Source of the DNA: Irpex lacteus
Taxonomy: Eukaryota; Basidiomycota; Agaricomycetes; Polyporales; Irpicaceae
Assembly (NCBI GenBank): GCA_001986395.2
Contig: MQVO02000004.1
Location: forward strand, 124,001 to 188,000
Length of the DNA stretch: 64,000 nucleotides
Direction of reading: 5' to 3'
Shown: positions 6,605-61,986 of the stretch, piece after piece
Layout: each line of letters starts with the position of its first letter
Numbering within the stretch: position 1 is the first letter of the stretch
Notes under the pieces: generated by a model
The model's database searches: none
What the model was told of the DNA's origin: nothing
Seen by the model: only the letters and a program-made list of their open reading frames with translations
Program-made: the position numbers and the translations under genes

Positions 6605-6682
6605 GGTGTTGAGGAGTGAGCGTTGTGCAGCGGCCGTTGTTGGATCGAGATTCGAGTCGAGAGGGTGAGCCAGGAAGATGGA

Positions 6683-6688: not shown

Positions 6689-6769
6689 ATGGTGAAGTGA
6701 GCGTAAGGGGCCTCTAACTTTTTGATCTTTGAACTTCTCGCAACTACGAGCAATCTCGAGCACTGAAGC

Positions 6770-7609
6770 ATGACACACGAACAACCTGCATACCCGACGG
6801 CGTCTCACCGTCAGCGAAGACAGAAGAGGAACACCCTAGAGACTCGGAACTGCAAACCTCGAGCGCCACCTCAGAGAGCGCATTCGTTGCCGACCCGTTT
6901 CTCTATCAGATATCCAGCGTCGAGGGATGGGAGTCGCCTTCGGATTGACGATATAGAACTTGAAGACGAGCAGCCACTACAACTTGGACCCGAGGACGGC
7001 GGCCAGAACTCTAGTGGCTTTTGCAGTCCACCCCTTGGCGTCCTATCTCCCATATGCATGACTCCTGTTCATGCCCCATACTTCCAACGCCACCCGCCCT
7101 TCCCCCCGCCTCCGCCTCCACCTCCAGCATATGTCCCGTGGCGCCACATTCCCCGGCCTCCCCTCCTCAGACCAGACGCGATCGTCCATCTTTACAAGGC
7201 ACCAACCTATACTCACCGGCGGCAGTGGCGTACGAGATTCCTCCTAGGATATGGAGGCCTTCCCATCGACGCCATACCACTCACCTATCTATGTATGCGT
7301 TCAACCAACGAGGTCGCCGTCCAGCGTGCATCTGCAGGACTCAAAGTGCTTGAGAGGCTCGCGCCGTATATCGCTAGGAGGACTTTCCCTGATATCGGTT
7401 TTTGTGAGCAAACAGCGATGTTTGGGTGTGAAGACATCGTACCTGTGCATCCGAGAGGGTGTCCCGCATTCGATCCGATTCTGGGGAATATATGGTGCGA
7501 TAGTAATGGATGGATCGTGGCGGTGACGAACCCTGGAGTGGTGTTTACGGATGAGAGGGTGTATGGGGGATTGGCGAGGAGGTTTTCGCACTGTCGTGGG
7601 CAATGTTAG
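6770..7609 (+). CDS. Hypothetical protein, proline-rich middle
   Basis: A single open frame of 279 codons starting MTHEQPAYPT. Residues 1-60 are basic. A proline run (FPPPPPPPPAYVPW) is near residues 110-125. The C-terminal 90 residues form a compact region with GLKVLERLAPYIARRTFP, FGCEDIVPVHPRG and NGWIVAVTNPGVVF, ending HCRGQC. No known domain is recognised. The C-terminal part is duplicated at 8216-8487 with mostly conservative changes, so it was probably under selection as a protein. An intron ending at CTGCAG (7339) is possible, because the duplicate begins its homology there; the N-terminal half would then be spliced differently. Confidence 0.55.
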   Translation: MTHEQPAYPTASHRQRRQKRNTLETRNCKPRAPPQRAHSLPTRFSIRYPASRDGSRLRIDDIELEDEQPLQLGPEDGGQNSSGFCSPPLGVLSPICMTPVHAPYFQRHPPFPPPPPPPPAYVPWRHIPRPPLLRPDAIVHLYKAPTYTHRRQWRTRFLLGYGGLPIDAIPLTYLCMRSTNEVAVQRASAGLKVLERLAPYIARRTFPDIGFCEQTAMFGCEDIVPVHPRGCPAFDPILGNIWCDSNGWIVAVTNPGVVFTDERVYGGLARRFSHCRGQC

Positions 7610-9070: not shown

Positions 9071-9427
9071 AGTGAAACTAGAGAGTCCGAAGGAAGCACC
9101 GACGACGATGAGCACGAAGGGTATCCCAAACAACGATGGGTGTTTTCGTAGTCGCTCGTGTATTGGATGACGCCTGAGCGGATGTGAGGTAAACGGCGGC
9201 ATGGTGGTCCTCGCCGTGTCGTACAATGACGAGCTCGTTGTTTACGACGAAGTTGAAAGCGAGGGCGCGGACGGACGTCCGGGGCTCGTTCGGACCGGCC
9301 GAGCGACCAGCCAAAACTGGAGCCCCGACTCGTCCGTTCACAAAATGACTCTGACTCTCATCCACCACCATCAGATAACCGTCTCCCCTCCATCTTCGAG
9401 TAAACACTCGACGGTATTCGTGCCACC

Positions 9428-11259
<1,832 letters not shown>

Positions 11260-12347
11260 ACGGTGAAGAAGATTGAGAAGGAAAGAAAGAAATGAGATGG
11301 GAGTGTGTGTAAGGGGAAAAGAAGAAATGTATTGATTATTGTAGAGAATCAGAAGTGTGTTTGAAGTGTTCACTTACTCGTCAGTGCTCTAGGTCTTGAT
11401 CAGTAAATAGGTGTGACGTTCACGGAGCTAAGCAAACCTACTCTAGCTCTTTCATCTCTAGGTGAGTATACCACCACCCGATGACTACTTGGATTCACTA
11501 ACATATACAATAATTTCGGATTTCAGGTCGCGCTGTGGCCCTGGCGCAGGTATGAAAGACTTCCGAACGAGTTGATAGGCATGATCTGCATCTACCTGCC
11601 AAGCCCTCCGTTCGTTTCTGTCATACGACTGCGACGACAAGGTTGGTTGGTACCTGGGGACTAGAACGTCCCTAGGGGAGCTGTATCCTGGACTATCGAC
11701 GGCAGTGAGATGATAGACACAACGATATCGGCGCAATTGGAGGGTCATATGGTGGTACCGTTCATACATAGCCACCCGCAGAACTCGCGGCTTTTTCGTT
11801 TACTTAGAGAGTTTGAGACGATGGGAGCCTTCCGAGGCACCTGACTACCAGCGGGATCCGGTTTGTGTACGCGTCCCCTTCAAAAACGTTGTTCCGTTAT
11901 ATAGTACCAATCCGCAATTTTCATTGAAGGACCTCAAATGACCCAATCGAATGTTGCGATACTAGGGCTCGATGACTTCAGCATCGAGTGGACCAGTATC
12001 GCGTTCGTCTCCAGGTACCGTCGATATCCTGGCCGGACTCTTGCCTCTGCTGAGGTTGAAATGTCCAAGTTCAGGCCCGGTGAATCGTCTACTTTGTTCG
12101 ATTATAATTAAATACCGCTTCGATTGCGTTCATACTTGCCAGATCGCTTGTGCTACATCGAGGATGACTAGTGACCATCCAATTCGATTCGGCGAATATA
12201 TTTATAATCTCATCTGTACTCTAAATGTCAAGTGCAAGCACTAAGAGCGGACACACATTCCCGGCAGTACATGTGAGACTATGTGGGATTGATACAGCTA
12301 CTGATAATTACATAGTCGACAATCGGTGTGCCTGTGCTGATGTGCGG
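11260..12347. other. Intergenic between two 3' ends
   Basis: The synthetase and P450 copy 2 converge here. Only short frames without recognisable features are present, so the stretch should mainly hold terminators. Confidence 0.5.
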
Positions 12348-14396
12348 TTAGTTGTCAGTTGAGAGAATGAGACGTTCAGCCTTTTCATTGCGGGGCTTGA
12401 TAGCATATCTGAACGGCTTCGGGTGACTGTGCGGAGTCCATATTTTAAATGGGGTCGAACAAGTCAACATTGAGATACGTACCTGACCGCACCCGTGGTG
12501 TAAGCATCAATCGGGTCGATGGGCTGACCGTTCTCCACGGCCTTCGAAATGTCGTAAACTGCCAGAATCATGGCACACCAGATATAAACCGACGAGTCCG
12601 CGAAATGCATGCCGGGGCATATTCTGTACACAGCGGTAGTATCAGCCTTGTTCAAAAGCGCATTTTTATTCCTCGTATCACCTACCTTCGTCCATAGCCG
12701 AAGCAAACATCGTAGACATTTGGACCGTCGGTGGGCTCGCCCGCCTCAGTCACATGCCGACTAGGATCAAAGACTTCCGGGTTGGGATACGTATCCGGAT
12801 CGTAAAATATAGCCCTACGGTACGTCCGAGTCAGCGTCATAACCGGAGACGAATGAAGGCATACTGACCAAATGTTTCCAAACACGCTAGTACCTTTGGG
12901 GATGTAATAACCCTCGTGGATTACGTCTTCCATCATCCGATGAGGAAGAGCTACACACGATCCAAGGCATCAGTAGACGACGACCGATATAGAAATCGCA
13001 AAACGCACTGGTTGGGGCAAGAGGTTTCCAACGGAAGATCTCCTTCACGATTGCCTCGACGTAGGGAAGTTGCGGGCGATCATCGAAGGTTGGGAACCGA
13101 TCATTTCCGACGACTAGGTCTATCTCTGCTTGTGCGCGCTTCTGTACTTCTGGGTACAAGGTCATAGCCAAAACGAAAGAATGGATGGCAGAAACGGTCT
13201 ATAGTAGACAGGCGCGGTGGAGTCAGTGAGGTAGTAACGACACATCGACGTACAAACGTACCGTATCAGCCCCGCCTATGTCACACAAAAGCGCATTAGA
13301 ATCCGCGTTCGAGCACAGGTAGGCCAGCTCCGCTTACCTGAGTAAATCGATGCGGCCGCCCACTTGATGTTGTACTCAGTCTCTGGGTCGAGCTTCTTGG
13401 TATCTAAGCAGTCCGTGATAAGGTTCGGAGGTAGCTCTACGTTACGCGCCTGTAACAAGAGATCAGTATTACTCACAGGTGGAACAGAGAAAGAACGTAC
13501 AATTCTATCCTTGGTAAGATCATAAGGAACGGCGGCCATGTCGGTCACTAATGCCTTCATCCACTTTGCTTCATTCTTAAATCCACCACCAGGGAACCAC
13601 GATGGCAGAAAACGCAAGATCGGGAAATAGTCGACGAACCATGCGCCGGGAGTTGTACCTGCAGCTAGCGTATCCATAGCCTTCTCTACGAGGTGGACAA
13701 TGGGGTCATTCTCTTCCTTAATAGAATAGCCATATGCAAGATTCAAGATAATAGCACCGGCGTTTCTATTGAACCGTAAGTTTTGGTTCAGCAATTATTA
13801 TCCCTCAAAGGGCGGTACTTACTTGCGAATCTCGACGCCGATGTCTTCCTTACTATGAAGGACGCGACGGAGAAACTTGCGATTTTCCTCTATCATCAGA
13901 TCGTGGTGACGCTCGACCAGAGACTTCGTGCCCATTGACATGTGGAAATACTTGCGATATTCACGGAAACGGTGGCCATACGGAGTGAGGGCCAGCGCAT
14001 TCTTCCACCCAAGTAGTTCGCTGGCCATGGCAAGCGTTGGTCGATCAGCGGTGATGCCGCTCTTCTTGTTCAGGAGTGCCGCGGCCTGTTTAGCGGAATT
14101 GAGGACGACGACGTGTTCTCCAACCACGTTCACGTGTACGATGTCGCCTATGTAGAATGTCAGCTACGCGGTGCACGATGGGTAAAGAATACATTCGGCT
14201 CACCGTATTTCTCTCCCCATTGCATATAGGTGCGCCATGGGAGAGAGGTTGGCATGTCGAGTAGATTGCCGATGATGGGGTAGCCCTTGGGGCCTGGAGG
14301 GTAAGGAGCAGGCTGCTTGCGCCTGGAAAAGTGGACGATAAGGCTGATTGCAGCGAGCACGATTCCCGCATCTATGAGGAGTTGGGTATTGGTCAT
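12348..14396 (-). CDS. Cytochrome P450 monooxygenase, copy 2
   Basis: A membrane-anchored P450, predicted 509 aa. Exons: 14396-14204, 14147-13823, 13765-13501, 13449-13338, 13275-13262, 13198-13009, 12950-12869, 12814-12686, 12623-12483, 12426-12348. Features are an N-terminal anchor (LLIDAGIVLAAISLIV), the hinge PAPYPPGPKGYPIIGN, the I-helix site GGADT, the K-helix EIFR, FDPSRH in place of PERF, and the haem loop FGYGRRICPG. Every exon has the same length as in copy 1 except exon 9 (141 against 144 nt), including the 14-nt exon. The pair therefore arose by gene duplication; synthetase and duplicated DNA now separate them. The substrate is unknown. Confidence 0.94.
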
Positions 14397-14443
14397 TTTA
14401 GAAAGCAGTGGTTTGATAATAGACCTGTAGAGGAGCGGCCGCT

Positions 14444-14451
14444 CTTATATA
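14444..14451 (-). promoter_or_regulatory. TATA box of P450 copy 2
   Basis: TATATAAG on the minus strand, 48 bp upstream of the start codon of P450 copy 2. Confidence 0.5.
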
Positions 14452-17400
14452 GTCGCATAGTCTGGTGTTCGTAACGCTCGTAGTCCTGGGAAGCGTGAAC
14501 CTAACATATAGGGAAGTGAGCGACAAGAACACAAAGTTCACAGATGGGCGATACCGTTCCGGTCGGAGGAGCACCTGTGATAATATGTGCCCTTGGTGGA
14601 TGTCTGCCATCAGACTGCAGTACGCAGTCCCCTATCAACTACCATGCCGAAACCGTGGTTATCCTGCGCTTTAGTGAGCGGCTGAGTTCGCGTTGTCGGT
14701 GTCGTGACGAAACCAGAAAATTGCTCCAAGGACATATTTTGATGAAAGAACATTATTCTCTCAGTCAGATCAACTGGGCAGCATTTGTGGGTTCGAAAGA
14801 AATTTGTAATAAAAACATAACTTACCGTTACTCTGTCGTATTTTAGCTATACCGTCGCTGTTATCTAAGGCAAAATATATGAGAATGCTTGCAAGGACAG
14901 ATGTTCTCGTATTTATGCCGGTGCTGTTTTTTCGGCGATACGAAAAACGGCAGGTATTGGGCCACCAATACAGGATTCCTTTGTGCCGTTTATGCCACAG
15001 TAATCACCCCGTGATGGACATCCTCAGTCATGGATCGCATCGCAAGGGTGTTCTGGAGTCGAGCATGGTATGTGCACCGTGTTCTATCTGGTAGGATGTT
15101 CATTCAGGTCAGTGTACGTGTACAATAACGAGGAACTCACCATGTTCTGTGACATGATTTGATCCAGTCGTCAGAGTACAGCGCGTTGTGGCGCATTGAT
15201 ACCAGGACTTCTGATACTTCTGAACTCCAAAATTGAGCGCAGAAGCTGGAGTTGTGATCCACAGCTCAGAACTTGGAGGCAAATCGGACAATATGACAGG
15301 GTTCAATAGCTATACCCTACACATGCAGCGTTGGCATGCTGCTAACCACGATACGACAACGCCACTGTGCGGCATAGAGAACCGGCCACCTATACCCACT
15401 GGCACTTCCCGTCGACAAGTCTTGAATCGTGCCTGGGTTGGGAGATCAAAATGCCACATTTTGAGATATAGAGCTGCATAGAGCCTAGTACTGGTCTACC
15501 GGTTCATTGGGGCTAGGTGAGCTCAACTTCCTCGCTTCACATACCGAATGTGCCTGCAAATAAATATGCAAAAGGTTATCGACGAATCGGGGCGACAACT
15601 CACCGTGACATTGGAGTCGATACCGTGATTTCGGACTCATACACAGAAGGCCTGCATTTCTCACGGTGCCTCGAACTGCTATCAGACAGCTTCATAATGG
15701 TGGGGTGTGTTGGATTTGTGAACACTTGAACAAGGACGTCGACGTGATGAATCTCGATGATAATGAAGCTTTGAAGAGCAATTGGTAAGAAGGGGAACAG
15801 ACGCCCAGGGACAGTGGTCTCGGATCATTTTTGTTACTTCCCAAAAGCGATCACGTACTTCGCCGCAGAAACGGCGAAAGTGCAGCAATGTCAAACTCCT
15901 GCTTGTCTATCTGTCTTTCTGGGTATACCTCTCGATGCCTCTATCCAGAGTGAGTGGTCTTATCTATCCTATGGAATACTACGTGCATTCACCTGAGTCG
16001 TAGAATGGATCATAGTAGTACACGGCCAAGTGTAGTCAACAATGTCTCATCAGCGTTGGCGACCATTTCTCGAGTGGTACGAAACGGTCGATAGTCTGTA
16101 CTGGTCTGGCAGCTCCGAGGCGATGCAACAGAGATCCGTGCCTACTTAGTGGCGCCATTCTTTGAATTGTAAAGCTCCGAGATAACACTGACAGGGTGAC
16201 ATGTATAACGTTGAGCGCAGCCTAGGCTACGCCGTTTGATAAGTAATGAGCTATGCGCATTGTCGATTTGCGGACCAATCACTAATTATGTCTAGATGAC
16301 TGCATGTGTATACAACGAGTGGTGTAATACTTGCCTCAAGGACTGCGGCCGGATTATGTCTCGGTCCGCGGCGAGTATTATTGCAAAGCTGCCATCTCCA
16401 CTCGATGTCCGCTTTCCAATTGGGTTTTGGTATATCTGTTCGCTATTTCATTACGCTTGACATGCTTATAACCTCCACAGCACCAAGCCCTTTTCACCAA
16501 CGTTATTGACGAGTCACGACATACCGTCCTGCCAGTACTGCAATGTTGGACTCATACAGTCTCCGACCGGTCATCGGCTGTGCGATGGTCATGGCTTTCC
16601 GTATCGGGAGGACAAAGCTTGGTTGACTCAGAACTGCGACTATCGCCGCTCATAAAAGATACTGAGAGCGCTAGCTGTCATGCAAAGACAGAGATTACGC
16701 AAGGTCTGAGCCTGAGGGTGAAAGATTGACACTGGACCCTACACTCAGCGCCTCGGGATCCGTTGCGGTGCAGCTTTAGCAATGCAACTTTCAACTCGCC
16801 TCCAACAGACAACTCGGCCCAATAGCTTGTCCCTCTTTCCGGGTGAATCCTGCGGACATTCTGGCTAGATTACTCACGCGAGCATGCGGTGTAGCTTGAG
16901 GTATTTCTATCCCCAAGAAGCCAGTACCGTGCAGCCTCAAGTACGGACACTCCTGCTCCTCTATCTCATCCTTCACATTCTGCAGTCTTCCAGATTAATC
17001 TTGCTTTAGTCTATACGTCGTGAGAGCGGTACGCCACATCTGCATTCCTCATAACATCGCGCCTGATATCCTGTCTAAGAGACAATGATACGGAGGAGTA
17101 TTCGTCCACCTCGGGCTTTCACAGCGTGGCCGAGGTTCCAACTAACGACGATATGCACCAAACTTGGCGACAGGTGTACAAGTGGAGTCTGGTGTTTTCA
17201 AATACGCAGCCTGTGCTGCACGGGGGCACGACGAAGACGGTGCGTACACCGATCACATCGCAAGGTTTACTTGCATTGATGGCATATGTGTCGTAGACAA
17301 GCGTACAAGATTGTTTTTTGACACTCGTACAGGCACCCTTCACCCTAGATTTGGAGCCGAGAACTGTCGATCTCGGAATACTTCTCAAGCGTTTACGTGA

Positions 17401-35940: not shown

Positions 35941-36318
35941 ATGCCAGACAAGTCAGACGTAGACACAGTAAGATTCTCCAAAAGTGCGTTTATGGTTTCG
36001 ACTCCTGACTAGATCTGACTCGTGCGATTCATAGGATGTCACGTCGCCGTCTCTACCGCGCGACACTTCAAGGTCACGGTGCCAGCTGCAGGAAGTTACT
36101 GCATGTCGCTGTACGAGCATCGTGTAGCTCTACATGTCTTCCTCATGAGATCTGGGACGCCATAATCCTCGACAGATACCCGAAGACCTCAATCACAGCA
36201 TGGCAGATTCCACCGCGCACTGGTGGAATCTGTGCTCTCTCGTATGTCAACAGTGGCGCAGTATCGCACTGCCGTATCTCTTCCGTCGTATCTGGATCAC
36301 CTGGAACGGTCGAAAGGT
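35941..36318 (+). pseudogene. F-box gene, 5' half (split by the transposon)
   Basis: Exon 1 (35941-35967, MPDKSDVDT) and the start of exon 2 (from 36035) align with the intact F-box gene at 50195. The F-box core is visible as LPHEIWDAIILDRYPKTSIT near 36130-36200. It already carries an in-frame TAG near 36121 and frame changes around the F-box. The coding sequence stops at the transposon, before the ACA at 36319. The second half resumes at 47563. Confidence 0.85.
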
Positions 36319-36366
36319 ACACACTGCGTGCATCACCCGATGTTCCGCGGCGGAGATGAAATAATG
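36319..36366. repeat. Left target duplication and terminal inverted repeat
   Basis: ACA at 36319-36321 is the target duplication. The repeat at 36322-36366 begins CACTGCGTGCATCACCC and contains TTCCGCGGCGGAGATGAA. It matches the reverse complement of 47518-47562 at 42 of 45 positions. Confidence 0.95.
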
Positions 36367-37293
36367 CTCGTCAAGAACCAATCAGAATGGTATCCTCCAT
36401 TTGCGGAGAAGTAAATTTTGAATTTTCCTGGCTGTAGCGGGTTTTAATGTTCCGTGACTGCTGCCCTGCTCATTATTTTATATATGCTAGAGCTAATCAG
36501 TATGAATGTCCTAACAGAGGACATAGAGAACCCATTTTTGTAGTTGCGCGAAGGAAGACTGAAGGAAAAGTCTTTCTAGGTGCGCACTGAACTAGTAAAT
36601 AAGGCCCTGCGAAGTACACGCACAGTCGGATCAGACATGTGGAGGATATCGGTCCGAAGTTGTCAGTCTGATGCATGTATGATAGCGACCGGTTAACTTT
36701 CGCAATATAGCCCGTAGATATCGGCGTGTACAATATCTGGTGGATCTCCGGAAATGATGTCAGCTAAACAAATTTCGAATGACAAGATGACAGCGTCGAT
36801 TTATCATATGCATATGACAAGCTGGTATATCCTGCGGATATGAATTCTGAGATATATGTCGGACAACCGCGCTATAAGCACAATTTATCATCTCTTTATT
36901 GTAGGTTCAATAGGCGAGTGTGCACCCGCAGGGATCGGGCTAGCTTATAGGATGCTTACAGGTTTCTGGCGGGCCCATTAACAGATAAAAGCATGTATAA
37001 TGTGTGCGAATGTACTAAAACGATGCAATACAATACGTGAGGCACAAGAAATGACAGCTATTAAATGATTATACGTAGGCCCGGGCCCAGACATCACTGG
37101 CTGCAAAGCATTCCGAGCGAAGCAAGCAGCCCGAACGAAACAGGAACGCGTGAGCAAAGGAGAGCAGCGGCAACGTCGACGAAAGAGAGAGAGCGGCGGT
37201 ACCAAGCAGAGACAACAGCAATGAAAGACGGCGGCGGCAACGTCGACGAAGTAAAGCGGTAGCCGACGACGACAACCGCAGGCTCAGAATGTC
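36367..37293. other. Left subterminal region of the transposon
   Basis: Non-coding, AT-rich DNA between the left inverted repeat and the first internal gene. It contains motifs such as GGTGGATC (near 36740) and TGACAGCGTC (near 36790) that recur in the right subterminal zone. These are candidates for transposase-binding sites, but no count was made. Confidence 0.5.
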
Positions 37294-38848
37294 CTACAGA
37301 GAATGGTAGTACGATTCAGCCATTTGCTGAAGGGTGGTAGGCCCGTTGTGATGCTCAGGGACCCTCTTGTTGCCGAAAAGCCTGCAGTCCGTGGCGAAGC
37401 ACTCAGAGAAGAACCTATATGCGTGTGAACATGTTTAGCAATAGAGACACTGATAGATTATAATATGAACTTACTCGTTCAGCTTCATCTTGTACTGCGC
37501 CTCAGTGCGTGGCGCCGTCTCAGGACCACGGCAGTCAAGGTGAACCTTCTCCAGAGTGTTGTCTACGAACTTCCAAAACCGCTTTGTGACATCGTTCTCC
37601 TCCACGAAGCTGGCCTCAGACTCATCCTGCACGGAGGCAGGCTCCGATGTAGACTCGAAAGTGACGGAAGAGGTCGACACAGACCTGGTCAGGGAGCGAG
37701 GAGCCGACACCGGAGTCGGGCCATCTGCAGCGGGAGTCGAGGGGCGGGTAGCGGGAGTCGAGGGGCGGGTAGCAGGAGCCGGTTCCTTCAACTGCTTCTG
37801 GAACTGGACATAGGTCAGGCGCTGCTTGTAGTTAGCATCTGTATGTCACAGGTATTGATACACGTACCAGAAAGGCTATGCGGGTGTAATGCACGGCGTC
37901 GATTTCAACATGCGGAGCGAGACTAAAGATCCTCTTCGTCAGCTCCACCACATTTTGAGGTCTGGTCCTAACACGCCCGTTCTGCGAGACATAGCCGACG
38001 AGGGACTGCTCAATCTACATAACGGTTAGTATGTATATTAGGTGAAGTGAAGACTCGTACCTTGGCCTTGATAGCCCCACGAACACGACTCAAGAGCAAG
38101 CCAATAAGCCTCATGACGATATTCCACTTCTCAGCACTTTCGACCGTCGTAGCCGGGATCTTGAAAGACTGGGGATTACTGCGAACCAAGAGCTGATGGT
38201 ATACACTGCTCGTCAGTAAGTTCGCAACATGAGATAACAATATGACATACCGTGATATCGTCCAGCGCGGTCTTCACGTAGGACCTGATGCTGGGGGAGA
38301 GCATACAGCCGACGAGGTCCTTTTGGAAGCCTTTCTGTAAATTTTGTTAGAACACGGTTTCTAAAGTAACAGGTAGCTAGCGTACCTTGAAATCCGCGCT
38401 CGTAAGGTAGGCAATGGTGTTCTGGGCCTCCAGACCGCGGTTGGTATGAGCAGTCAATTTGGCCATGATCTCAATATCCCTGTAAACCCGGGGAAGCTGA
38501 TAGCGCGTGAGTAGGGATTTTTGAGTATATGAAACGTGAAATGATTATGCTTACGACGGCAAACCACTCGAGGCTGTCGACAGCAAGCCCCTCCCTGGAA
38601 GACGCAGCACGGGAATACGCCCTGAGACGTTTGTGAGCAGCCTCGTCAGCCGGATCCTCATCCTCGTCGTCAGAACGCTCTTGAGTTGAACGACGACGCA
38701 AGATAGGGCCGACATGGGATGGACCTTGGCTTGCCGTTTGGCTCGCACTGTCCGAGCCCGCAGAACCAGCAGAAGAGTCGAGAGACGTGTCATCCTGCCT
38801 ATTGTCCTCGGCAGGGATGAAGTCGAAGCGAGAAAAGAAAGACTCCAT
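37294..38848 (-). CDS. Transposon-borne protein of unknown function
   Basis: Exons: 38848-38555, 38496-38386, 38334-38251, 38192-38061, 38014-37868, 37824-37475, 37414-37294, giving 412 aa. The start MESFFSRFDFIPAEDN is followed by an acidic Ser/Asp-rich segment with RRRSTQERSDDEDEDPADEA. A helical region (LPRVYRDIEIMAKLTAHTNR) and a conserved-looking middle (GFQKDLVGCMLSP, KWNIVMRLIGLLLSRVRGAI) come next. Then come a Pro/Thr repeat (ATRPSTPATRPSTPA) and a C-terminus with FFSECFATDCRLFGNKRVPE. No known domain is recognised. It is transcribed in the same direction as the transposase and lies downstream of it. Its clean seven-exon frame suggests it is maintained; a role in transposition or regulation is only an inference. 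Confidence 0.75.
37730..37771. repeat. Two tandem 21-bp copies, coding for PSTPATR
   Basis: The 21-bp unit GCGGGAGTCGAGGGGCGGGT(A) occurs twice in phase, with a partial third copy. It encodes a Pro/Ser/Thr repeat in the gene at 37294-38848. Confidence 0.8.
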
Positions 38849-39067
38849 CGAGCTCGAAAGGTCGAGCTCGATGAAACAGCGAAGGAGGGAAAGAATGAGA
38901 CGCAATGGGATGGTGGTTGAAGTCGAACATGGCGCGTCTATATATTCAGCAATAGGCGCACATAACTTATGTTTTGCACGCCGGCGGCTGCCAGTGCAGC
39001 ATCTGCACGAGAAAGGTGCTCAATACACGAGGTAAATTTGAGAAAACTTGAGGTGAACACATGCAAT

Positions 39068-42000
39068 CTATTGTACGTGATAATTGGGCATTGCAGGCGA
39101 GCTGCGTACCCATTGCGTAAAGCGGTTGAATTGAGAAGAAGGTGTAGTCGGGATGGAACTTTCCTCTGTACCAGCAACAGTAAAGGCATGCGACTGAAGT
39201 GAGTGCGCAAATGCGAATTGTGGGTCATGAGGCTGTGATGGGAACGCGTAAGAAGGTTCTCCATTTGAGATCATGAGGGGGGGAGGCAAAGAAGGTGATG
39301 CGTGGACAAAAGGCGAGTAAGGGAGCCCCATCATGGGGGACCACTGCAAGGGATCTGCGTAAGAACTTGAAGGAGGCACTGGCGCGGGGAGCTGTTGCCA
39401 ATATGCCCCTGTCTCTGTGTGATCGCGCGGGTGTGCGTGTGCACTGACGAACCCGCTGGTAGCCAATGAACCATCCATCCCTAGTGGGGCTTGCTGTGGC
39501 GATTATGAGATACGGAGCATTATAACGACAATAAAGAGACTTACACTCGTCAAAGCAATCCCCTGCGCTGCAGTAATTTCATGCATACTCGCGTCCCATG
39601 GAGGATGATTTGGGCCTTCTGCTGAACGTGCCACTGATGGCCCGGGAGCGCACTGTAAAACATTACCTCAATACTAGTAAGCGATCTATTCACTGGATGA
39701 GACGACAAGTGTACTTACGTCCGCTACAGATTGCGAGATTGAGTCAGCTGGTTCGCGCTGCATTGCGGATGCCTTCCGTTTGTGCCCTCTTGTCGGACGG
39801 CGACTAGATATTTGGTCGAATGCGATGTCTAGAAGTCGAAGTTAGCAATTGAGACATCCGAGGGATCCTTTCATTTGTGCGTATATGGAAAAATCTCCTA
39901 CTCACCATGCTGTTCCCCCAAAGTGAGGCCCAAGCTGCTCTGAATTTCACTTGTCAAGTGCATCTCGAGCGGTGATGCACCAACAGAGGAAGGTTGAAGC
40001 TCGGGCTGGGGTACCGGTATGGCTTTAGTTCGTGTACGAGAGGTGGCTGGCTGAGAACCTCGGCGTCCTCCACGGTTGGTAGTTGCTGCTGAGCTTGTGA
40101 CTTGTGGGATCTGGATGGCGGCATTTTTGCGAGCCTTCATCGTCTCGACCGCCTGAGCTTGAATCCCAGATCGAGCGTCCTCAGGGTGTACCAAGGTGAT
40201 CTTGTGAAGGTCTTCTGGTAATGCATCGCGGATTTGCTGATAGTTGTGTATCGAGTGCGTGTTAAGCAGATATAAGGCTGTATCTGCGTGACGAAGGACG
40301 GGAAGAGTGCAGTGATCACTAATGACGCGCTCTTGTTTCCGCGGTTGGGATGTGATTTCTTTGCAGTTACTGTCAAGACAATTGTGCTGAACATTAACCG
40401 CACAGATCAAGCTCTGGCGTGGAAGTCAATGGGAAAGAAAAAAAAATTGCAGCGCGAGAGAACATACCTCATACGAGACGACCGTTTCGCGCTGCGTGAG
40501 AGTCAACTGCGGCAGCCTGTAACGGTCATGTCTGGTGCTCTCGAGATAAAATAACTGTAGACAAACGTGCGAGAGGTATTTGTTTGCCTTAGAAGGGGTA
40601 AGCATCTCTGTTATCCTCGCAAAGCAAGGCTAGTTGGCGAAAAAGACTCAGCAAACTTGAAGTCTATCGACTTGGAGAATGCAGCGCACCTTGCCATCGG
40701 CACCTGTCGCAATGATGTCATCTCCGATTGAGACTTTATCACCATTGTTGAGGACCACAGATTGGACCTGCATAAATTGTAGTTCCATCGGTGGCTCGCT
40801 ATCGGCTGCAAATTTTGAGCATCGGGTTTGTGACCATAACACAGGAGGGGGAGCCCGCCCATTGTTCGTTGACTTAACTAAAGTAAGAGAGCCTGTATGG
40901 TGTGAACGCTGAGGTAAGTAATGTCGCTCTCATGAACATCGGAGATATATACGTACCATGATTCGTGGCCGGCTGAGTGTATCCCAGATATGCCTTGTCT
41001 TTCGGGTTGTCGTCCATATACTCTCTAACACCTTGCCCTGCTTGACGCCAGACTCGTTTTTGATGATCGTACCAATATCCCCCAAGAGCAATGTGTCGGA
41101 CGGTGTCTTGTTTGGCGAAGCTGATGCATGTGTCCCGACTAGGAGCTTGGTGGTTGCTAAAGATTGAGGAGAGGCGGAAGACATGGTTGAAGCTTTCGTA
41201 GCGCTCTGTCGAGAACAATATAGCGGGACCGAAACGTCGAATGTAAGCCGGAAGATGCACGAGAAAGTGGAACTTAGGCTTGCTAATCAGGATACTTGGC
41301 GCACATTGCGCAGTGATATTAAGGAGATCTTGAATTGTTCGAGACAACGTCGCCTATTGGCATGCATAGAGTGATTAGTCTAGGCAACGCTCAAGCAAGT
41401 GTACTTACCAGATAGTCTTCCATGTCGTCAATCTTGGTGTGCCATAAGAGCATCACCAAATCGCCAATAACGTTCCATGCGTTAAGAACATTCTGAGGGA
41501 CAAGATCAAAGATCACAAAAGGCATCACCTGAGCGATGCTCTTGAAGTGCTTCCCAATAAGACCGCCCCGGTAGTGGCAAATGTACTCCGGGACAAAAGA
41601 CGGGAGATTCAAACCGTGTGTGGACAACGACTGCATTCGAGCCTGTAAAAGGTCAAGTGCTTTCGCTTTTTCTATCCACGCAACTGTCTGTGCCCAGAAG
41701 TACTTGACGACACCCAGGAGAATAGTATGCAGAATCTCCGTGGGTGTGTCTTTGTGAATATCAACACCTGTGCGGCCCGGATGATTCAGTACAAAGATCA
41801 GTCGCTCTCACGAGTATCACGGGTGTAAGCTCACCTGCTAGTCCCAGTAAGGGATTTATCCAGTCATCGACGGGGCGCTGTTTAAGGAGATTGTGCAGCT
41901 CATTTTCGAGCTGCTGTCTTATATCTGCCTCTGATCGACGAGGCTGATTAAGCTGCTTCTCACGAAGCTTCTTACCCAGCTCAACCACGGTTTGAATGAC

Positions 42001-44301
42001 ATTGTCCAACCCCGTGTCGCGGATACCGGTTGCCCGACGAGTATTGTCAATTTCAGTCTGAGCTCCGGACCTTACGGACGCAGCAACCTGTTTTCGTATC
42101 TCTTCTGCGGTTTCGGCGGGTGTGCGATGTCGACCTTCCTAAGTACTCACACAAATGAAGAAGTTTCATTGCTGGCTAGGAGAGAGAAACGCCTACCTTG
42201 AACAATGTCGCATAACCTTCTAAGGAAGACTTGAACTCTCGTGTACCTCCAACATGACAGGTTCGACAGAAGAAGTTTCCTTGCAAGCCCAATTGGCTAG
42301 CAAGCTCAGCCTGCATTGGGTTGTCGCCTGCAAAGAACAGAGCATACGGCAGGAGCAGAACATCTTCATTGTTCATGCAATCCCACGCATCTACGCCTGA
42401 CTCGGCAGCCGAGCTTAGATGAGGTGAGAACATTACAGCACATGCCTCACGCGAGACGATAACACGTACCTTATTGAATCCCGAATGGCCTGCATCAACT
42501 CCATTGGCGAGGCATGCGGCGACGAGGTCACAAACCGTACACAAAATTCCTTCTCAATCATTTCGCGAGGGAGATTTGCGTTCGACATATATGCAACGAA
42601 ATGCTTGTTCCATTGCTTGGAAATATTCCCCGAGACGTCGTCCATGAAGATAATGAGCGGGACCGAGTAGCACATTCGTCCCTTGGCACGCTCTCGGATT
42701 GGGTGTGGCATGCGTGCAGCATACTCTGAGGATTCGTCTGTGTATCTAAGCATTAGTCTGCGCACTCCCGGATAGATTAGAATATATATATACCTGTGAA
42801 ACCATGCGATAGATCGCTCGAAGGCAACTGATCATATGGAATGTCAAACGATGAAGTCCGGCGGATGACTTGCTTCTGACTATCGACACTAAATCCTCTC
42901 TGGATATCATATGAGCCTCTGAACACGTTGATATCATTTAGCACATACCTCGATTTTCTTTACCACTCGTCCTAATGCTAACAGCTCTTTCTCTGGTTTC
43001 TCCGAGTCCCCAGTTGCACCAGTCTCAGAAGACCTCGGCACACCCATATAGAATCTCTCAGGAATAAAGAACGACCCATCAACGCATCGGAGGAGCTCAT
43101 TGACGAAATATATCTGACCTCGAACCTTTGCGCAGGGGGTTGCAATGCCTTGTGGGCTGTCAAGAAGCATTTTGTGTCCGTGAAATGCTTGTGACGCCCC
43201 CTTGCCTTCAAGCTCGGGAAAGTCGGACATTGCAAAACGTGTAAGTGGATTCGAGTAGTCCTTCGTTCAAAACCTGAGTGAGGGAGCTTTATCTTGATCA
43301 CTCGTGTACTCACCTTCGCAATGGCATGAGCGATGTCGTTGATATAGAAGATGTTCCCGCCCGTCCCGGTCACCTTCTTTGTCGGATTTCCGAGTATTTT
43401 GGCCAGATCCCGTTGAGACTTGTCGAGCGCATATTTGCTTGGAACATCTTCTGCTTTGAGTGCCTTGGCCCATCGTAGGATTGCTTCCAGCTGTGCTTCC
43501 GAGAACCTGAGGCGGGGGGAACTCAGAAGTAGATCAGTGAGAAAAACCTGTGTATAGCTATCAATAGTACGTGATTTAATATTCTAAGATTACGTGCACG
43601 TACCGACTTCGAAGGCCATGGATAGTATGGGTTGTCTCGGACTGGAATATCTAGGAGGTTACGTGCACCTTAGCTCGTTTATGGGAAATACGATACATCG
43701 ACTCACCTTCGGCTTGATCGTGCTGGCCTCCGCTGGAGCTGGCACCGGTGGGGAGTTGCATATCTTCGTCATCAGGAAGCGCGTCATCATTATCTTCGAA
43801 TGACTGTTCCAGTGGTTCCTCACGAGGCGGCGGGGCAAGACTGATATCTTGGTCATCTACTTCCCAAAGCTCGCTCAAAGGGACCAGGTCCTCTGCGTCG
43901 GCGACGTCGGGCTCCGCATTCTCTGCAGCTTGTAGGGCCTCTACGTCTTCATCGGGGCTGTCTTGCATCGTACATAGTTCGAATTCCGGGGATTGTTGGT
44001 CCCTTGGTTGTTGCTCCTTCTCACTGGCACGCGCCAGTGACTGCTGTATACGACGAGTTTCTAAGTTGAATAGTATGCGTTTGTGACGCTCTTGATGTCT
44101 ACTGGTGGCTTCGTGTTTAGCCACAAATCGCCGGCCCATTATCTTCGGTTCACCTGTCTTCCCGTCACTGCAGATTTGGCACTGAACAGTGTTGCCACCT
44201 GGTAGTATTGTCCACACTTGTAATACATGAGTTTTATTGACGTGGCATGCTAAAAGCGTTAAACTCACCCTGCGGATCCAAGGGAGCATTTTTTCCCGCA
44301 T
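39068..44301 (-). CDS. Plavaka-family transposase
   Basis: A multi-exon DDE/RNase H-fold transposase related to CACTA transposases. The start is near 44301 (MREKMLPWIRR). A C2H2-like segment follows (VQCQICSDG...ATSRHQERH), then an acidic stretch. Typical Plavaka blocks occur in order: NPYYPWPSKS, FSEAQLEAILRWAKALKAED, GNIFYINDIAHAIA, VRGQIYFVNELLRCVDG, LIIFMDDVSGNISKQWNKH (about 42.64 kb), FFAGDNPMQAELASQLG with FCRTCHVGG (about 42.3 kb), FHFLVHLPAYIRRFGP and STERYESFNHVFR (about 41.2 kb). Candidate catalytic acids are the Asp of MDDVSGN, the Asp of AGDNP and a Glu of STERYESF. The C-terminal part runs through a basic AT-hook-like stretch (TTNRGGRRGSQPATSRTRTK) to a proline-rich end at 39068. 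Exon borders between 39.1 and 40.6 kb are uncertain. Confidence 0.85.
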
Positions 44302-44773
44302 GCCTGCTCATCGCGATGTTCTATTAGTTGGGAGCTTCTGCTCGATGACGAGGAATCTGAATATTGGAAAGAACGCGACGCGACGTGCTGCCGCGATCAC
44401 ATGTGCGTTCGGCGCTACGACCTTGTGTTGCACGTTCAACTTGAACATGCCTTGTCCTCGTTGCTTTCTCCTCCTTTGTCCTTTGAACCCTCCTCCCTCC
44501 TCGCCTCCGCCACCACCACCAGAGCCCATGGAAAAGGGCAGTTTCTCTCTGAATAGACACAATGGAGCCCCCCCTTCTCGCCTGGGCCCACTGAACCCGA
44601 TGCAGTTCGAGTGGTCGATCAATACGCCGTCGGCTGGGGATGGACAGAAGACGGTGAGTACTGTTTTTGAATATATTTCTATCTACACTCACTTCTAGTA
44701 GTCCTGTACTTTTACCTTCAGAGACCAGTCCTTCACCTTCGACCTCTGTGGCCCCACCACGGTCATCTTCACC

Positions 44774-45631
44774 ATGCCCACCGCCCGCTCACCGCGTGTT
44801 ATCGCCGACGTCTATACCTTGACCGAGGGGACGGTTGAGCCACTCGAGGCACTCTGCGACGACCAGGCCCCAGCTACGGCCAATACACCATACGACACGG
44901 CCGTCGACCAGGCGATCGAACACGCCGTCGACATTGCTGTCAAGGACGAGGCGACAGACTCGGCCAGTGTGAACTGGGAGGAACGGTCCCCAGATTGCCC
45001 CCTCGATGTGGACGAGAACGCTGGGATGGGTGCCGAGATGGTTGACCACGAGGATTTCAGAGAACAGGACGACGGCTACGATGACGAAGACAACGAAGAC
45101 GACGGCTACGATGACGAAGACGACGAAGACGACGACATCGACTCCGACGCCTCGAGCGAGCTGGTTTACGGCCGTCAGCCGGTGAGTACGAGGCATTATC
45201 ATTTCTTATTCACATCACACTCATACAACACCTAGGACCCGGACTCCGATGATCTGCTCGTGGACGAAAACGACCCTCCCTTCTTTCACCTCATCATGAA
45301 GAAGAAGTTCAGGTACAAGCTCACACCTCCTTGGCTGATGCTCAGCCTCCGGATTCAAGACTGGCTCGCTAAGCTCGTGCGCGACCATGACGAGCATCCC
45401 CTGCTGCAATGGGGGATCGAACTTTTCTGGATTTCCTTCGTCGGTGCCTACCCAGACTTTCCGTATGGAATATGGCCCTCGTGGAATGGGTACGCTGCCC
45501 CCTTCGACGGCGCATTCCTCACCAGCTGGTTGAAAAGGCCTCGTGGCGAGCACCCACCCGATGACGTTCGGCAGGAGATGTGGAATGAGCTTACTTATCG
45601 TGTCATATCGTATCATGGTGGTGTTGTTTAG
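44774..45631 (+). CDS. Transposon-borne acidic protein of unknown function
   Basis: Exons 44774-45181 and 45236-45631 give 267 aa from the ATG at 44774 (MPTARSPRVIADVYTLTEGT). The same frame is open upstream to the acceptor at 44721 (DQSFTFDLCGPTTVIF), so an earlier exon probably exists. The frame of the coding-like stretch at 44528-44653 does not join it in phase. The middle is very acidic, with a 30-bp duplication at 45069-45128 encoding DDGYDDED. The C-terminal 120 residues look globular (FFHLIMKKKFRYKLTPPWLM, LQWGIELFWISFVGAYPDF). It is transcribed divergently from the transposase. No family recognised. Confidence 0.65.
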
Positions 45632-47517
45632 AATTTTGTCTCTCATTTGGTCGCTTTTTTTGAATGGATACTCTACATGTGCTCTGTTACCCTGGAATCA
45701 TATATGTGCTTGGTTTGAATGTGCACGCGAGTGATACTTAGTGTGAATTTGCTTGTGCCGCCGCGCCGCATGTCAGTATACTCTGGATATCTGCCCGCTA
45801 TCTGTGTGATAACTCTCGGACATCTCAGCGGTGGATATCCGGTGGATATCATACTTCAATGATCAGTAGATGTGTGAAAGTTTTATCTCGTTGCTATCCT
45901 CCAGATCATTGCTGCGTGTATCCTGTGCAATTCACCATTATGAACATTTGACAGCGTCAAAATATCGCTACGGCGGTATCCTCAGCATAAAACAATAATT
46001 TATTCACCGGTTACTCAATACATGATGACAACGTATGGCCCGATCATCACCGGCATAACTTTCTCACTTTTATCCGCCCTATAAATTATTCACCTGGGCG
46101 TGTATATACAGTGTAATCACGCTGTTTCTATGATGCTACGCTGCCTGACAACTTGTATGCTGCTTCGAGTAACAATTACTTGAATGATGGGAGATACATT
46201 TTGATTATATTACAGAGTAATGGGAGGCATGTTGCACGAACTTTCCGGCATGTTCAATTGATAAAGTAATCTGCATGCTAATCTGAGTAACAAAACTTCA
46301 ACATACGGTGCTACCTTTTAGAATGTTGCCGGTTAGAGTGGGTAAGGATACATTGATAAGAAAAAAAACATGTTTTGTAGTGATACATTCAAGATTCTGC
46401 CGGGTGACAATTGAGTAACATTGAGAATGTTTCGGAGGATGACTTCGTACCGATTGTTTGCAGGCGGAACAGAGGATATGCCCCACATGAAAGCATCGCG
46501 TACATCATTGGAGGAGGAGTCAAAATGTTCCCCGACGCAATATGCTAAATAATGCCATGTCGCGCTTTTAACACGAGGAGGTACCCCGAGCACCGATTAA
46601 TACCGCGGTTTGACGGAAACTTATAATTAGTATGTTAAAGAGACCTAAATGTCATGTTTCCTAATATTCACCTAAACAGAGCGGCTGCACATGTGAATGG
46701 CAGCGTTTGCGTTGATTTTCCCGAGGCCCTTCCTTGTCGGTGTCTATCACGTGAGCGTAAATGCTTGCAATCAAACTATGCAGTGTCAGAGGTCCCAGTG
46801 AACGATCACATCCTCCATTACACCGTTGTTTTTAATGTCAGCCTCATGTAAACACCATGTTTCCTCGCGCAATAATCTCAATGTTCCGTACACATTGTTT
46901 CCTCCTGCACTTTCTTCAATGCTGGCTCGACACACAGTTTTGATTTCTCTACGGCGTGTTCGCTCGGGAGCTATCCAAATGTTTCGCGGCATAATGCATG
47001 GAGCATTATTACTTCTTACACAAACGAGTTCGCGGGAACAGTACTTATGCTTCTTCGAAATCCTTTTCAACAGGCTTCCTGCTATAGCAAATTTATTTCT
47101 ATTCACATTATGGCGCAGGGAGATTTGGTGGGACTTTATGACAACTTCAGAGAGATGTTCAGAATGTTATCGCGGTAATCTTCAATAATTAATCCCATGC
47201 TAGCATCGTCAAAGAGTCCGCGATGTGTGTCACATGCTTCTGCTAGTTCCAAATGTGGGACATTTTGCTCACTTTTAATCCCCTCAGTCGGCGCAACATC
47301 GAAAAAGATGTCATAATTCTATCGGTCTGCTTTGTGAAGCTACAACTCAAAAGCATCTGGCCGTGTATTGTAGTCTTTCCTCCTCGTTTCTCACTGGTGA
47401 ACACTGTAAAAGATACGCTCTGCAATATTAAGACCTATTCTTTGCGATACATGTAATATATTTTAGCAATGTTTGCCAAGTAACCAGTATGATAAAAATC
47501 AAAATTATCCCTAATAA
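45632..47517. other. Right subterminal region of the transposon
   Basis: About 1.9 kb of AT-rich non-coding DNA. It holds repeated short motifs: GAGTAACA (near 46169, 46284 and 46413), TGGATATC with CGGTGGATAT (near 45830), a GCCGG-containing motif near 46330 and 46400, and TGACAGCGTC (near 45952). Such repeats are expected in the binding zones of CACTA transposases. Confidence 0.5.
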
Positions 47518-47565
47518 CATTGATTCATCTCCGCCGCGGAACATGGGGTGATGCACGCAGTGACA
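47518..47565. repeat. Right terminal inverted repeat and target duplication
   Basis: 47518-47562 is the inverted counterpart of 36322-36366 and ends CACGCAGTG. ACA at 47563-47565 is the second copy of the target duplication. Confidence 0.95.
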
Positions 47566-48679
47566 GGAATACGCCGAGTTCTTCGCCAACAACCAGCACG
47601 TTGCGCGGCTCCACATCAACGACCGGATCGTCCAAGTCGAAGAACTGTTCTACATCCTAAGCTCTCTTCCACGGATACAATCCTTACACATGGTCAACAC
47701 CCGATTCAAACGAGGCGTATACCACCCAGCCCCTTCACCTTCGCGCTTGAGCACCTACAATGGAAACACACCTATGAAGAGACACCCGAAACTCTCTACC
47801 ACCGCAACTTTTGACGTGTTGTCCCTGTTTTCCAACATCAAACTACTGTCCTTGTCATCCCGCCGGGAGAGCGAGCCCGAACCTCCCAATCACCAAGCCT
47901 CTGCTCTCATCGCCGCCTCCCTCGTGGTTGGGAAACTACAGGTAGATACACTATCGCTCAACTCCGGATCGACCGTCCCCTCATTTCTCCTGGAGGTCGG
48001 CTCGTTGGATAAGCTTACCGAGCTGAAGCTCTCCGTCCATGACCCTCTGCTGATAATAGGTCCGTTCAGGAACCTGCTCTACTATCGGGGATAGCCTTCG
48101 GTCTTTGCACATAGACATAAACTACATAGGGCGGTGGCTTGACGTAGAATCCCCACAGATCACTAGTGAGTGTGAGCCATGTTTCTATCGCTCCTGCATA
48201 CCATCATATCAGGGAAGGAAACCGTCCTGACTGACTGAAATAAGCCCAGGTCTCTCCGCGTGCTCCCGCCTCTATTCGCAGCACTCTACAACTCACCAGG
48301 CAACCCTGCCATATGCGTCGAAGGCTGGCTCGCTGATCCAGCTCCTCCCCGCCTCGAATCTCCGCTCCCTCGTCCTGGACGTCCAATCCGACCCGAACAT
48401 CTTCCACTCGCTCCCCTGGGGCTCTCCGCGAACCGAGCTCCGTCGGTTCCCTCGCCTGGACACCCTCACCACGCGGTGTCGTGCGCGAGTTCAGGGATAG
48501 ATTGCGCATGCGCAGTGGTGCCCCGTCTGTCGGTGCACCGATTTGGACTGCGGGAAAGACGCTGCTGGGAACGAGGACACCACTTTGTACGAACTGTGAG
48601 CTTCTGAGCTTCTGGGACTCGCATGCTGACCCAAGAGATTTTTCATACGTTTCTAGCGAACTGGACAGCGACCGGTAGT
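47563..48679 (+). pseudogene. F-box gene, 3' half (split by the transposon)
   Basis: Directly after the transposon the frame resumes as EYAEFFANNQHVA and LHINDRIVQVEELFYILSSL. It continues with leucine-rich-repeat-like sequence (FDVLSLFSNIKLLSLSS; LDKLTELKLSVHD). Two compensating frameshifts bracket about 47715-47810: the matching stretch LEHLQWKHTYEETPETLYH is in another frame. A 12-nt in-frame deletion near 47611 is also seen against the paralogue at 50195. Later exons up to about 48.68 kb are recognisable but also broken. Confidence 0.8.
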
Positions 48680-50194: not shown

Positions 50195-51859
50195 ATGTCG
50201 GACATGCCAGACGAAGACGCAGTGAGATTTTATGTGCATGTGGTGAGTGCATGGTCTCAAGACTAACTCCTTTTTCGTAGGATGTCACGTCGTCTCCGAG
50301 TCTCCCGCAAGACACTATAAGGTGCCAGGAAGTTACAGCATCTCGTCGTACGACGACCCACGCACCTGGAAACCAAGTAACGTGTGGATATATGCGCCTG
50401 CCACATGAGATTTGGGATATCATTATCCTCGACGGGTACCCGAAGACACCGATAACGTACTGGGAGACTCCACCTTACGACTTGTGGATTCCGTGCTCTC
50501 TGGTTTGTTGGCAATGGCGCAGAATCGCCTTGCCATACATCTTCCGTCGCATCTGTATTGGCATGCTATCATCTGGTGTACAGAAATACGCCGAATTCTT
50601 TGCGAAAAACCGACACATCGCACAGTTGGTGCACCACCTCCACATCAACGACCGGGAAGTTGAAGTCGAAGAGTTATGCTACATCTTACGCTCTCTTCCC
50701 AAAATACGATCCTTGCACATGATTGGGACTCAAGTAAAGCGAAGCGAGGATTCTACTACACCGCTCAGCCAGCTGGATCTTGCCTTGGAGTGCTTGCAAT
50801 TGAACTTCGAGCGCAAGAAAGTACCGGAATCGGTGTACAACTCCATCTTTGATGTTTTGTCTTTATTTTCCTCCATCGATCTACTTTTCTTATGCTCAGA
50901 CTACGTCTATGAACCTGAACCCTCGAATGATCAGGTCCCTGCTCTTCTTGCCACTATTCCTGTTGGCAGGCCGCAGATCCGGACAATGTCGCTCAGATGC
51001 GAGGAGGTTATGACATCGTTTCTCCTGATCATCCTTCTCAAGGTCGGCTGGCTAGACAAGCTCACGGAGTTGAAGATTGCTGTTCATAAACCTTCGCGGG
51101 TATTCGGTCCACTTGCGAATCTGCTCCGCTCTGTTGGGGACACGCTACGGTCCTTACACCTCCACATCCCCACCATGATCCCGTGGCTTAAGATCGATGG
51201 CTCACAACTGACGAGTGAGTATTTACAATTTTTCTCTGTCCACTAATCCAACTAAAATAATGCACAGGAAGAGACATCCTTCTTGCCGAGATAAGCGAGG
51301 GGCTCTCAGCGTGCTCCCATCTCGATAATTTCTCTCTATCCGCAATCATATTCAACGATATCTGTCTTCAAAGCTGGTCTGTTGTGGACGGGATCACCCA
51401 GCTTATCCCTGTTGACCATCTCCGCCAGCTCTCCTTGGACGTCCGATTCTTTGAGGCCAACCCAGACATTGCCCATTCGCTATCGTGGTGTAATCTACAA
51501 GCCAAGTTACGCCGTTTTCCTCGTCTTGACTCCCTCACGACGCGGTTTTCCTCGCATCAGAACTATGAGTTCGTGTCCTGCGCCCCTTGCGTAGAGCTGG
51601 AGTTGCGAGAATTCAGGAATATCCTGCGCAGTGGCGTTAAATTCTATTCGGGCGATTGTAAATGCAAGAATTCGGATTGCAAGAGATACAGCGAGGAGAA
51701 TGATATTTCCAGAAAACACTGCACCACGATGTAAGCCCTGTAAATCTTTGTACTGCGCAGTGATTCGCGTGCTAACTACCAGACATCTTGTGTTCTTCTA
51801 GCATGCCCGACTCGGACTGCGATGACTGGTGGCTAATGAAACCGATTCTCTTCAACTAG
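50195..51859 (+). CDS. F-box protein with leucine-rich region
   Basis: Exons: 50195-50221, 50281-51214, 51268-51730, 51802-51859, giving 493 aa. The start MSDMPDEDA is short and followed by an intron, as in the paralogues. The F-box core is MRLPHEIWDIIILDGYP, then SLVCWQWRRIALPYIFRRI. The remainder is leucine-rich (HHLHINDREVEVEELCYIL; GWLDKLTELKIAVHKP). A cysteine-rich segment follows (CAPCVELELREF, CKCKNSDCKRYSEEN). F-box proteins bring substrates to SCF ubiquitin ligases, with Skp1 binding the F-box. The last intron could be retained, in which case the protein stops at 51733. It is the intact reference for the copy split by the transposon. Confidence 0.85.
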
Positions 51860-60282: not shown

Positions 60283-61986
60283 TCACCATGGTGAATTCAC
60301 CCGTCGTCGCTGCCGAGCGCACTGAGGATATTTCGTGATTAGCGATTGTATCTTCGCGGTGAAAAGAAAACGCTCATGATGCTTACATATCATCGCCGCC
60401 GTTCCGGAAATGTTACTCTTCTCGGCGTATCTCTTGCATTCGGAATTATTGCAATGACTGTCGATTGCACAACGTGGGACATCACTGTGCAGGATAGTCT
60501 TGAATTCTTGCAGCTCGAACTCAACGCACGGCGCACACGACGCATTGCCAAGGTCCTGAAACACGGAGAACTGTGTTGTGATAGCACTAAGATGAGAGAA
60601 ACGGTGTAATCCGGCTCGCAAATTGCCCCATGGAAGTGAATGGCAGATGTCGGGGCCAGCGTCCCCGGAGAATTGAACCTTCAAGTCAAAGTGGTGGAGG
60701 TAGCCGACAGGAACGAACTGAACGATCGTATTCACGATAGACCAGCCTTGAAGACATAGATCGGGATCATCTACGATATGATATATCATCGCTGATAGAG
60801 AGAACTCCTCGAGACGGGAACACGCGAAGAGACCTCGGTGTATCTGGGTAAGCAGGGTCTCCGTTCCTGTATGACCATTTAGCGGCTAGTCTGACTAAAG
60901 AGGCGATGAAACATTAGGTTCACTCACTGGTGCCTTGTGGTGATCGTATATCGATCCATTTCAAGCTAGAGGTTATATTGATATGTAAAGACCGAAGCAT
61001 GTCTCCGACATTGCAGAGCAAGTCGGCTAACGGACCAACTACTCGCAAGGGGTCATTGAGGGAAAGCTTCAACTCCGTAAGTTTGTCTAACCAGCCACCC
61101 TTGAGAAAAAAGGTCAAGAGCCACGAGGTCATGATAGCTCCGCATCGAAGGGACACCGCATGAGCTTGTGGCCTCTTGCTGAGGAGGAAAACGGCGACCG
61201 GGGCAGAGATTTGACTATTTAGAGCTTCCGGCTCATAGTGGTAATCTGAGGATAGTGATAGTAGTTTGATGACAGAGAACAGAGATAATATATCGGAAAT
61301 CTGATCGTGCACAGTTTCTGGTGATTCCTGGAAACTGATCTTCCATGAGAAGCACTCAAGCGTGAAGCTCGAGTGAGTAGGTGATATAACGGAGTCCTCC
61401 CCTCGTTCGAAGCGAGTATTGAGCAGGTGCAAGGACCGGATCTTGGGAAGTGAGCTTAAGAGGTAGCGCAGCCTCTCGACTTCAACCGTCCTGTCGTTGA
61501 TATGGAGGTGATGCACCGACCGCGCGATATGTTGGTTCTTGGCGAAGAAAATTGCGTATTCTCGTACATCACGGCCTTCCCAAGTAATCCAGATGCGACG
61601 GAATATGTACGGTAGGGCAATTCTGCGCCATTGTCGACAAACAAGAGAGCACGACATCCACCACGTGTGCGGCGGAACCTCCCAAGACGTTATTGGTGTC
61701 TTCCGATTCGGATAACCGTCGAGAATTATAGCATCCCAGAGCTCATAAGGTAAACGTGTGGATCCACATATTGAACCATTGTTAAGCGCATTGGTAGTCG
61801 TTGTAGCACCACGAGACGCGGCACCATGATTCTGATACCCCAGAGTACCGAGTGGTAGAGACGTCGACGTGGCACCCTATGGAACAAATGAGTTAAATAT
61901 GCGACAGTGAGCTTAATACAGGCGTTCAAGCAGAGTCTTACCGCAGGAGCTACTTCAGATTCTGCATAGAGGTTCAATTTGTCCAT
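60283..61986 (-). CDS. F-box protein with leucine-rich region, paralogue
   Basis: Exons 61986-61942, 61876-60928 and 60866-60283 give 525 aa. Exon 1 is MDKLNLYAESEVAPA, then a Thr/Ser-rich stretch. The F-box is TRLPYELWDAIILDGYP followed by SLVCRQWRRIALPYIFRRIW. Leucine-rich-like segments follow (HHLHINDRTVEVERLRYLLS; GWLDKLTELKLSLNDP), and the cysteine-rich segment CAPCVEFELQEF with CNNSECKRYAEKSN. A possible last intron after the ISGTAAMI region (donor GTAAGC near 60408) would give a different C-terminus, as in the gene at 50195. It is the same family as the gene at 50195 and the split copy at 35.9-48.7 kb. Confidence 0.82.

What the first reader, a model, noticed from the sequence alone, without database searches (positions are those of the whole stretch)
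36319..47565. Complete 11.2-kb CACTA/Plavaka transposon with precise ends
Seen: 45-bp inverted repeats (42 identical) starting CACTG, the 3-bp duplication ACA on both sides, and the two halves of one F-box gene joining across the insertion point. Known: CACTA-type elements have CACT(A/G) ends and 3-bp duplications, and Plavaka is a fungal branch. Inference: the element is recent in the sense that its ends and target duplication are intact, and it may be autonomous.
Basis: partly seen in the sequence, partly recalled or inferred. Interest (0 to 1): 0.85.

Follow-up and report, generated by a model that had tools for sequence, protein, structure and literature searches.

The report
Two nested transposons, not one
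What looked like one complete 11-kb fungal transposon is a 9.5-kb transposon that jumped into a small 1.75-kb transposon, which had itself landed in an F-box gene, so the large element's true ends are not the ones first reported.

The parts
36319..36321 (.). outer target duplication ACA, left copy
47563..47565 (.). outer target duplication ACA, right copy
36322..36366 (+). outer (CACTG) terminal inverted repeat, left
47518..47562 (-). outer (CACTG) terminal inverted repeat, right
36322..36616 (.). left part of the outer element (295 bp, with one TA)
   Evidence: only its first 54 bp recur in the genome
46105..47562 (.). right part of the outer element (1,458 bp)
   Evidence: only its last 136 bp or less recur in the genome
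36615..36616 (.). inner target duplication TA, left copy
   Evidence: by analogy with siblings that have empty sites; the window's own empty site was not found
46103..46104 (.). inner target duplication TA, right copy
   Evidence: as above
36617..46102 (.). inner element, 9,486 bp, termini CACGCACAG...CTGGGCGTG
39906..44301 (-). transposase gene of the inner element, many short introns; exon borders approximate
39973..40896 (-). part of the gene that matches the homologs' C-terminal region (BAH-like by fold in a homolog)
44702..45631 (+). two open frames on the other strand of the inner element, conserved in siblings C21, C40, C188 (44-57% identical)
   Evidence: no Pfam family
37471..39502 (-). 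further open frames of the inner element, conserved in the siblings (44-64% identical)
   Evidence: no Pfam family for the three tested
36009..36321 (+). 5' part of the interrupted F-box gene (approximate; reading frame changes within it)
47566..48094 (+). 3' part of the interrupted F-box gene

Best explanation
A nest of two cut-and-paste transposons. First, a small (about 1.75-kb) non-autonomous CACTG-ended element of fungal CACTA/EnSpm type inserted into an F-box gene and duplicated ACA (ends and duplication shown). Later, a 9,486-bp element ending CACGC...GCGTG inserted at a TA inside it and duplicated the TA (ends and duplication shown on siblings and their empty sites; the order follows from the nesting). 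The inner element encodes a DDE transposase of RAG1/Transib fold (shown on a homolog's predicted model), which presumably cuts at the CACGC ends and joins them to TA targets (inferred). No transposase was found in the outer element; it is presumably moved in trans by an unseen relative with CACTG ends (inferred).
For: Transposase region recurs at C40, C21 and C188 and not at the CACTG copies; all four copies share the ends TACACGC/GCGTGTA in unrelated flanks; C40 and C188 are 94% identical inside the core and have no match outside it. Terminus: 23 hits, 0 control hits, 10 inward-facing pairs and 3 singles. Empty sites: five of five MITE copies with one TA for C21; one for C267b; matches spanning the joined flanks for C272 (92%) and C1 (87%) (not viewed base by base). 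Outer remainder of 1,753 bp fits four short CACTG copies of 1,712, 1,720, 1,729 and 1,915 bp. Parallel case: C54b is a 1,729-bp-type CACTG element (899 + 830 bp, 96-97% identical to C66) around a PF18759 Plavaka element.
Against: No un-nested copy of the window's own outer element exists in the assembly, so the window's inner empty site is predicted, not seen. Two CACTG elements each holding a large transposase-bearing element is a coincidence that asks for an explanation. At C54b the bases beside the TA differ between occupied and empty copy. One CACTG pair (C255) has non-matching 3-bp flanks.
Confidence: 0.93

Rival explanations
1. One 11.2-kb CACTG-ended autonomous element; the siblings lost or swapped their ends.
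For: Intact CACTG ends and ACA duplication enclose everything; no un-nested copy of the outer halves was found; C54b has the same CACTG-plus-transposase layout.
Against: Core homology stops at the same TACACGC/GCGTGTA points in four copies; the core family has its own short copies and empty sites with one TA; the C54b insert is a different transposase family with its own CATCA..TGATG ends.
Confidence: 0.04
2. The nest is right but the inner element belongs to Plavaka, as a divergent branch.
For: Its family shares the D, D, C(2)C, H(3)H, E motif order that the paper gives for Plavaka and its relatives; a profile of its family aligns two short motifs of the C54b Plavaka protein (11 bits in a single-target search).
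Against: No PF18759 hit for the window model or for any of 23 homologs; the window locus and the three sibling cores are absent from the 107 PF18759 matches listed for this genome; termini are neither TGT..ACA nor CATCA..TGATG.
Confidence: 0.15
3. The core came into the CACTG element by recombination or gap repair, not by transposition.
For: The window's own empty site was not found, so capture cannot be excluded for this copy.
Against: Exact termini and TA at both borders, as in ten of ten copies whose flanks were read.
Confidence: 0.03

Closest known systems
ESTA, EnSpm-like transposons with TA duplications (Kojima 2025, PMC12730594; abstract, sections 16, 18, 24 part 1 and 34, and search passages read)
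   Same: TA duplication; CA..TG termini; the motif order given for this clade; RAG1 similarity, which the paper reports by HHpred for ESTA and which is seen here by fold on a homolog.
   Different: The published TET-bearing ESTA families are from rusts; no TET/JBP gene was recognised in the inner element. Whether it groups with ESTA in a tree was not testable.
Fungal EnSpm/CACTA (for the outer element)
   Same: CAC..GTG termini and 3-bp duplications, as stated in PMC12730594 and found here in seven complete copies.
   Different: No transposase found in the outer element; its CACTG-ended autonomous relative was not identified.
Plavaka (PF18759)
   Same: Same broad clade by motif order; a true Plavaka element is nested in the CACTG element C54b.
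   Different: The inner element here has no PF18759 hit and other termini.
RAG1, BbRAGL, Transib

Membership tests
Plavaka (inner element) | PF18759 domain in the transposase (the criterion stated in PMC8290104, passage read) | tested here: not met
   positive control C54b scores 5.5e-85
Plavaka (inner element) | termini TGT..ACA (PlavakaA) or CATCA..TGATG (PlavakaB), as in PMC12730594 | tested here: not met
   termini are CACGC..GCGTG
ESTA (inner element) | TA target duplication | tested here: met
   on siblings; window borders agree
ESTA (inner element) | CMCT-type motifs: D, D, C(2)C, H(3-4)H, E in that order | tested here: met
   columns kept in 22 or 23 of 23 homologs, the last glutamate column in 21; the window model carries the motifs
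ESTA (inner element) | groups with ESTA transposases in a tree | not testable with these tools
Fungal EnSpm/CACTA (outer element) | CAC..GTG termini | tested here: met
Fungal EnSpm/CACTA (outer element) | 3-bp target duplication | tested here: met
   window and six further complete copies; one further pair, C255, does not match
Fungal EnSpm/CACTA (outer element) | EnSpm-type transposase encoded | tested here: inconclusive
   no Pfam family in the one outer open frame scanned; consistent with a non-autonomous copy; autonomous relative not identified (searches covered only parts of the large CACTG copies)
BAH domain (in the inner transposase family) | BAH fold | tested here: inconclusive
   fold matches; no sequence-profile match

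The most novel reading that the evidence does not exclude
Probability: 0.3. Interest if true: 0.65.

Novelty: new member of a known kind. Interest (0 to 1): 0.35.

Why it matters
Nested transposons are common, but here the nest misleads: ends, duplication and family name would all be assigned to the wrong transposase. The siblings and empty sites fix the true ends of a widespread mushroom transposase family (120 homologs at E <= 0.001, among 7,995 scored candidates; no PF18759 in the listing's Pfam column). Its possible reader domains, if confirmed, would make chromatin-guided insertion testable in this family.

Tried and rejected
Single-element reading: disfavoured by siblings and empty sites. 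Plavaka membership of the inner element: rejected on PF18759 and termini.

A preference of the inner family for other repeats was considered. Of 10 copies whose flanks were read, 7 lie in or next to repeated DNA (window, C21, C188, C267b, C272, C1, and C66b: left flank, plus a 59-bp right-side match) and 3 (C40, C257, C296) show no second copy of the 200 bp tested on each side. In a small control, 4 of 6 segments of the same length also had other copies, so no preference is shown. The control segments came from loci that carry CACTG ends and are not random. Flanks of the C58 copy were not fetched.

BAH by sequence: profiles of both candidate segments found no BAH chain in the PDB sequences and no BAH family in Pfam. 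The whole-family profile against PDB sequences gave only two chance-level hits. The second model is poor overall (mean pLDDT 61.8, pTM 0.38).

The first gene-model attempt was too strict. The typed 1,027-aa model has doubtful exon borders at two places; homologous blocks are colinear with short gaps and I saw no clear inactivating change, but there is no transcript.

An autonomous partner for the CACTG ends was sought in young CACTG-ended repeats (C255/C267, C165/C38): ten open frames gave no transposase in Pfam, and the inner family's profile found none; only about 19 kb next to each end was held. Literature searches without any paper. One search listed five papers, not opened; of the five only PMC12730594 was read.

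Full report
The ends. The inverted repeats at 36322-36366 and 47518-47562 match at 42 of 45 positions and stand apart from the other five inverted pairs listed in the same 12.4 kb. ACA flanks both sides. A search of the assembly (44.3 Mb, 317 contigs) with the left end gave 14 hits. Six further copies have both ends, of 3195, 1729, 12404, 1720, 1712 and 1915 bp, and each has a perfect 3-bp duplication (CAG, CAC, TCT, ATA, AAA, GTA). With the window that makes seven. An eighth pair, C255:855727 and C255:903199, has TAT on one side and ACA on the other.

The host gene. Joining the flanks with one ACA gives continuous reading through the junction. Two open paralogs in the same window align across it at 54% and 56%, with no gap at the junction. 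Elsewhere the gene changes frame relative to these paralogs at two places, so it looks decayed apart from the insertion, unless unrecognised introns explain this.

The core is a separate element. A search with the transposase region found it at C40, C21 and C188, not at the other CACTG copies. In all four copies the homology starts and stops at the same points, TACACGC on the left and GCGTGTA on the right. C40 and C188 are 94% identical inside and show no match outside. The terminal pattern occurs 23 times in the genome and not once in the reversed control: 10 inward-facing pairs and 3 single hits. One of the singles (C267:77318) has a partner end with a slightly different sequence. Copies of 1,377-1,388 bp (C257, C267b, C272, C296) are much shorter than the full element and presumably non-autonomous.

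The duplication is TA. C21's core lies in a MITE of about 575 bp. Five unoccupied copies of that MITE were read; all five have one TA where C21 has TA-element-TA. The C267b copy lies in a repeat whose other copy has one TA at that point. For C272 and C1 a match runs across the joined flanks elsewhere in the genome (92% and 87%); I did not view those two base by base. In none of the 10 copies whose flanks were read are the 3 bp outside TACACGC and GCGTGTA the same on both sides. C188's core lies inside another element with 165-bp inverted repeats and a 9-bp duplication, TTACCGTCA, Mutator-like by recalled criteria.

The outer element. Without the inner one it is 295 + 1,458 = 1,753 bp, close to the four short CACTG copies. 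Its interior has no second copy in the genome: 54 bp of the left side and at most 136 bp of the right side recur. So the window's own inner empty site is predicted, not seen. C54b is a parallel: its first 899 and last 830 bp are 96-97% identical to the two halves of the 1,729-bp copy C66, and between them sits an insert with a Plavaka transposase (PF18759, E 5.5e-85) and CATCA..TGATG ends, as published for PlavakaB. The bases beside the TA differ there between C54b and C66, so that empty site is not exact.

Verdict. Ends real, interpretation corrected: two nested elements. The nesting itself is ordinary; the transposase family and its possible reader domains are what a specialist might follow.

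Noticed in passing
G000:C54:1140978-1153381 (L017, L018): A CACTG element (899 + 830 bp, 96-97% identical to the 1,729-bp copy C66) holds a PF18759 Plavaka element with CATCA..TGATG ends. It also holds an open frame that resembles a TET/JBP-type dioxygenase to my eye; no Pfam family supports that, so it is recalled only.
   Followed up: partly
G000:C255:855727-903199, C267:21689, C165:341623, C38:18815: Large, young repeats end exactly at the CACTG terminus (C255/C267 99.2-99.8% over 17 kb; C165/C38 99.3-99.7% over 7.6 kb). C255's two ends lie 47.5 kb apart, but their flanks do not match (TAT, ACA). Flank TAT matches that of C267 and ACA that of C165, as a swap between copies or a chimeric assembly would give.
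   Followed up: partly
G000:C21:55328-72308 and C60, C20, C1, C255, C267 copies (L035-L039): A MITE family of about 580 bp starting AGGTAGGCG, apparently with TA duplication; its copy at C21 hosts a 16.4-kb member of the inner family.
   Followed up: yes
G000:C188:20429-34204 (L033, L034): An element with 165-bp inverted repeats and a 9-bp duplication (Mutator-like by recall) hosts another member of the inner family.
   Followed up: partly
window 50281-51246 (+) and 60920-61876 (-): Two uninterrupted F-box paralogs of the interrupted gene. The query gave 46 matches in the genome, two of them its own halves, so this is a large family.
   Followed up: partly
G000:C38, about 5933-17121 (L026, L027): Relative to C165, C38 carries about 11 kb extra with a 2,729-aa open frame that looks like a Gypsy-type polyprotein (recalled, not tested).
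   Followed up: no
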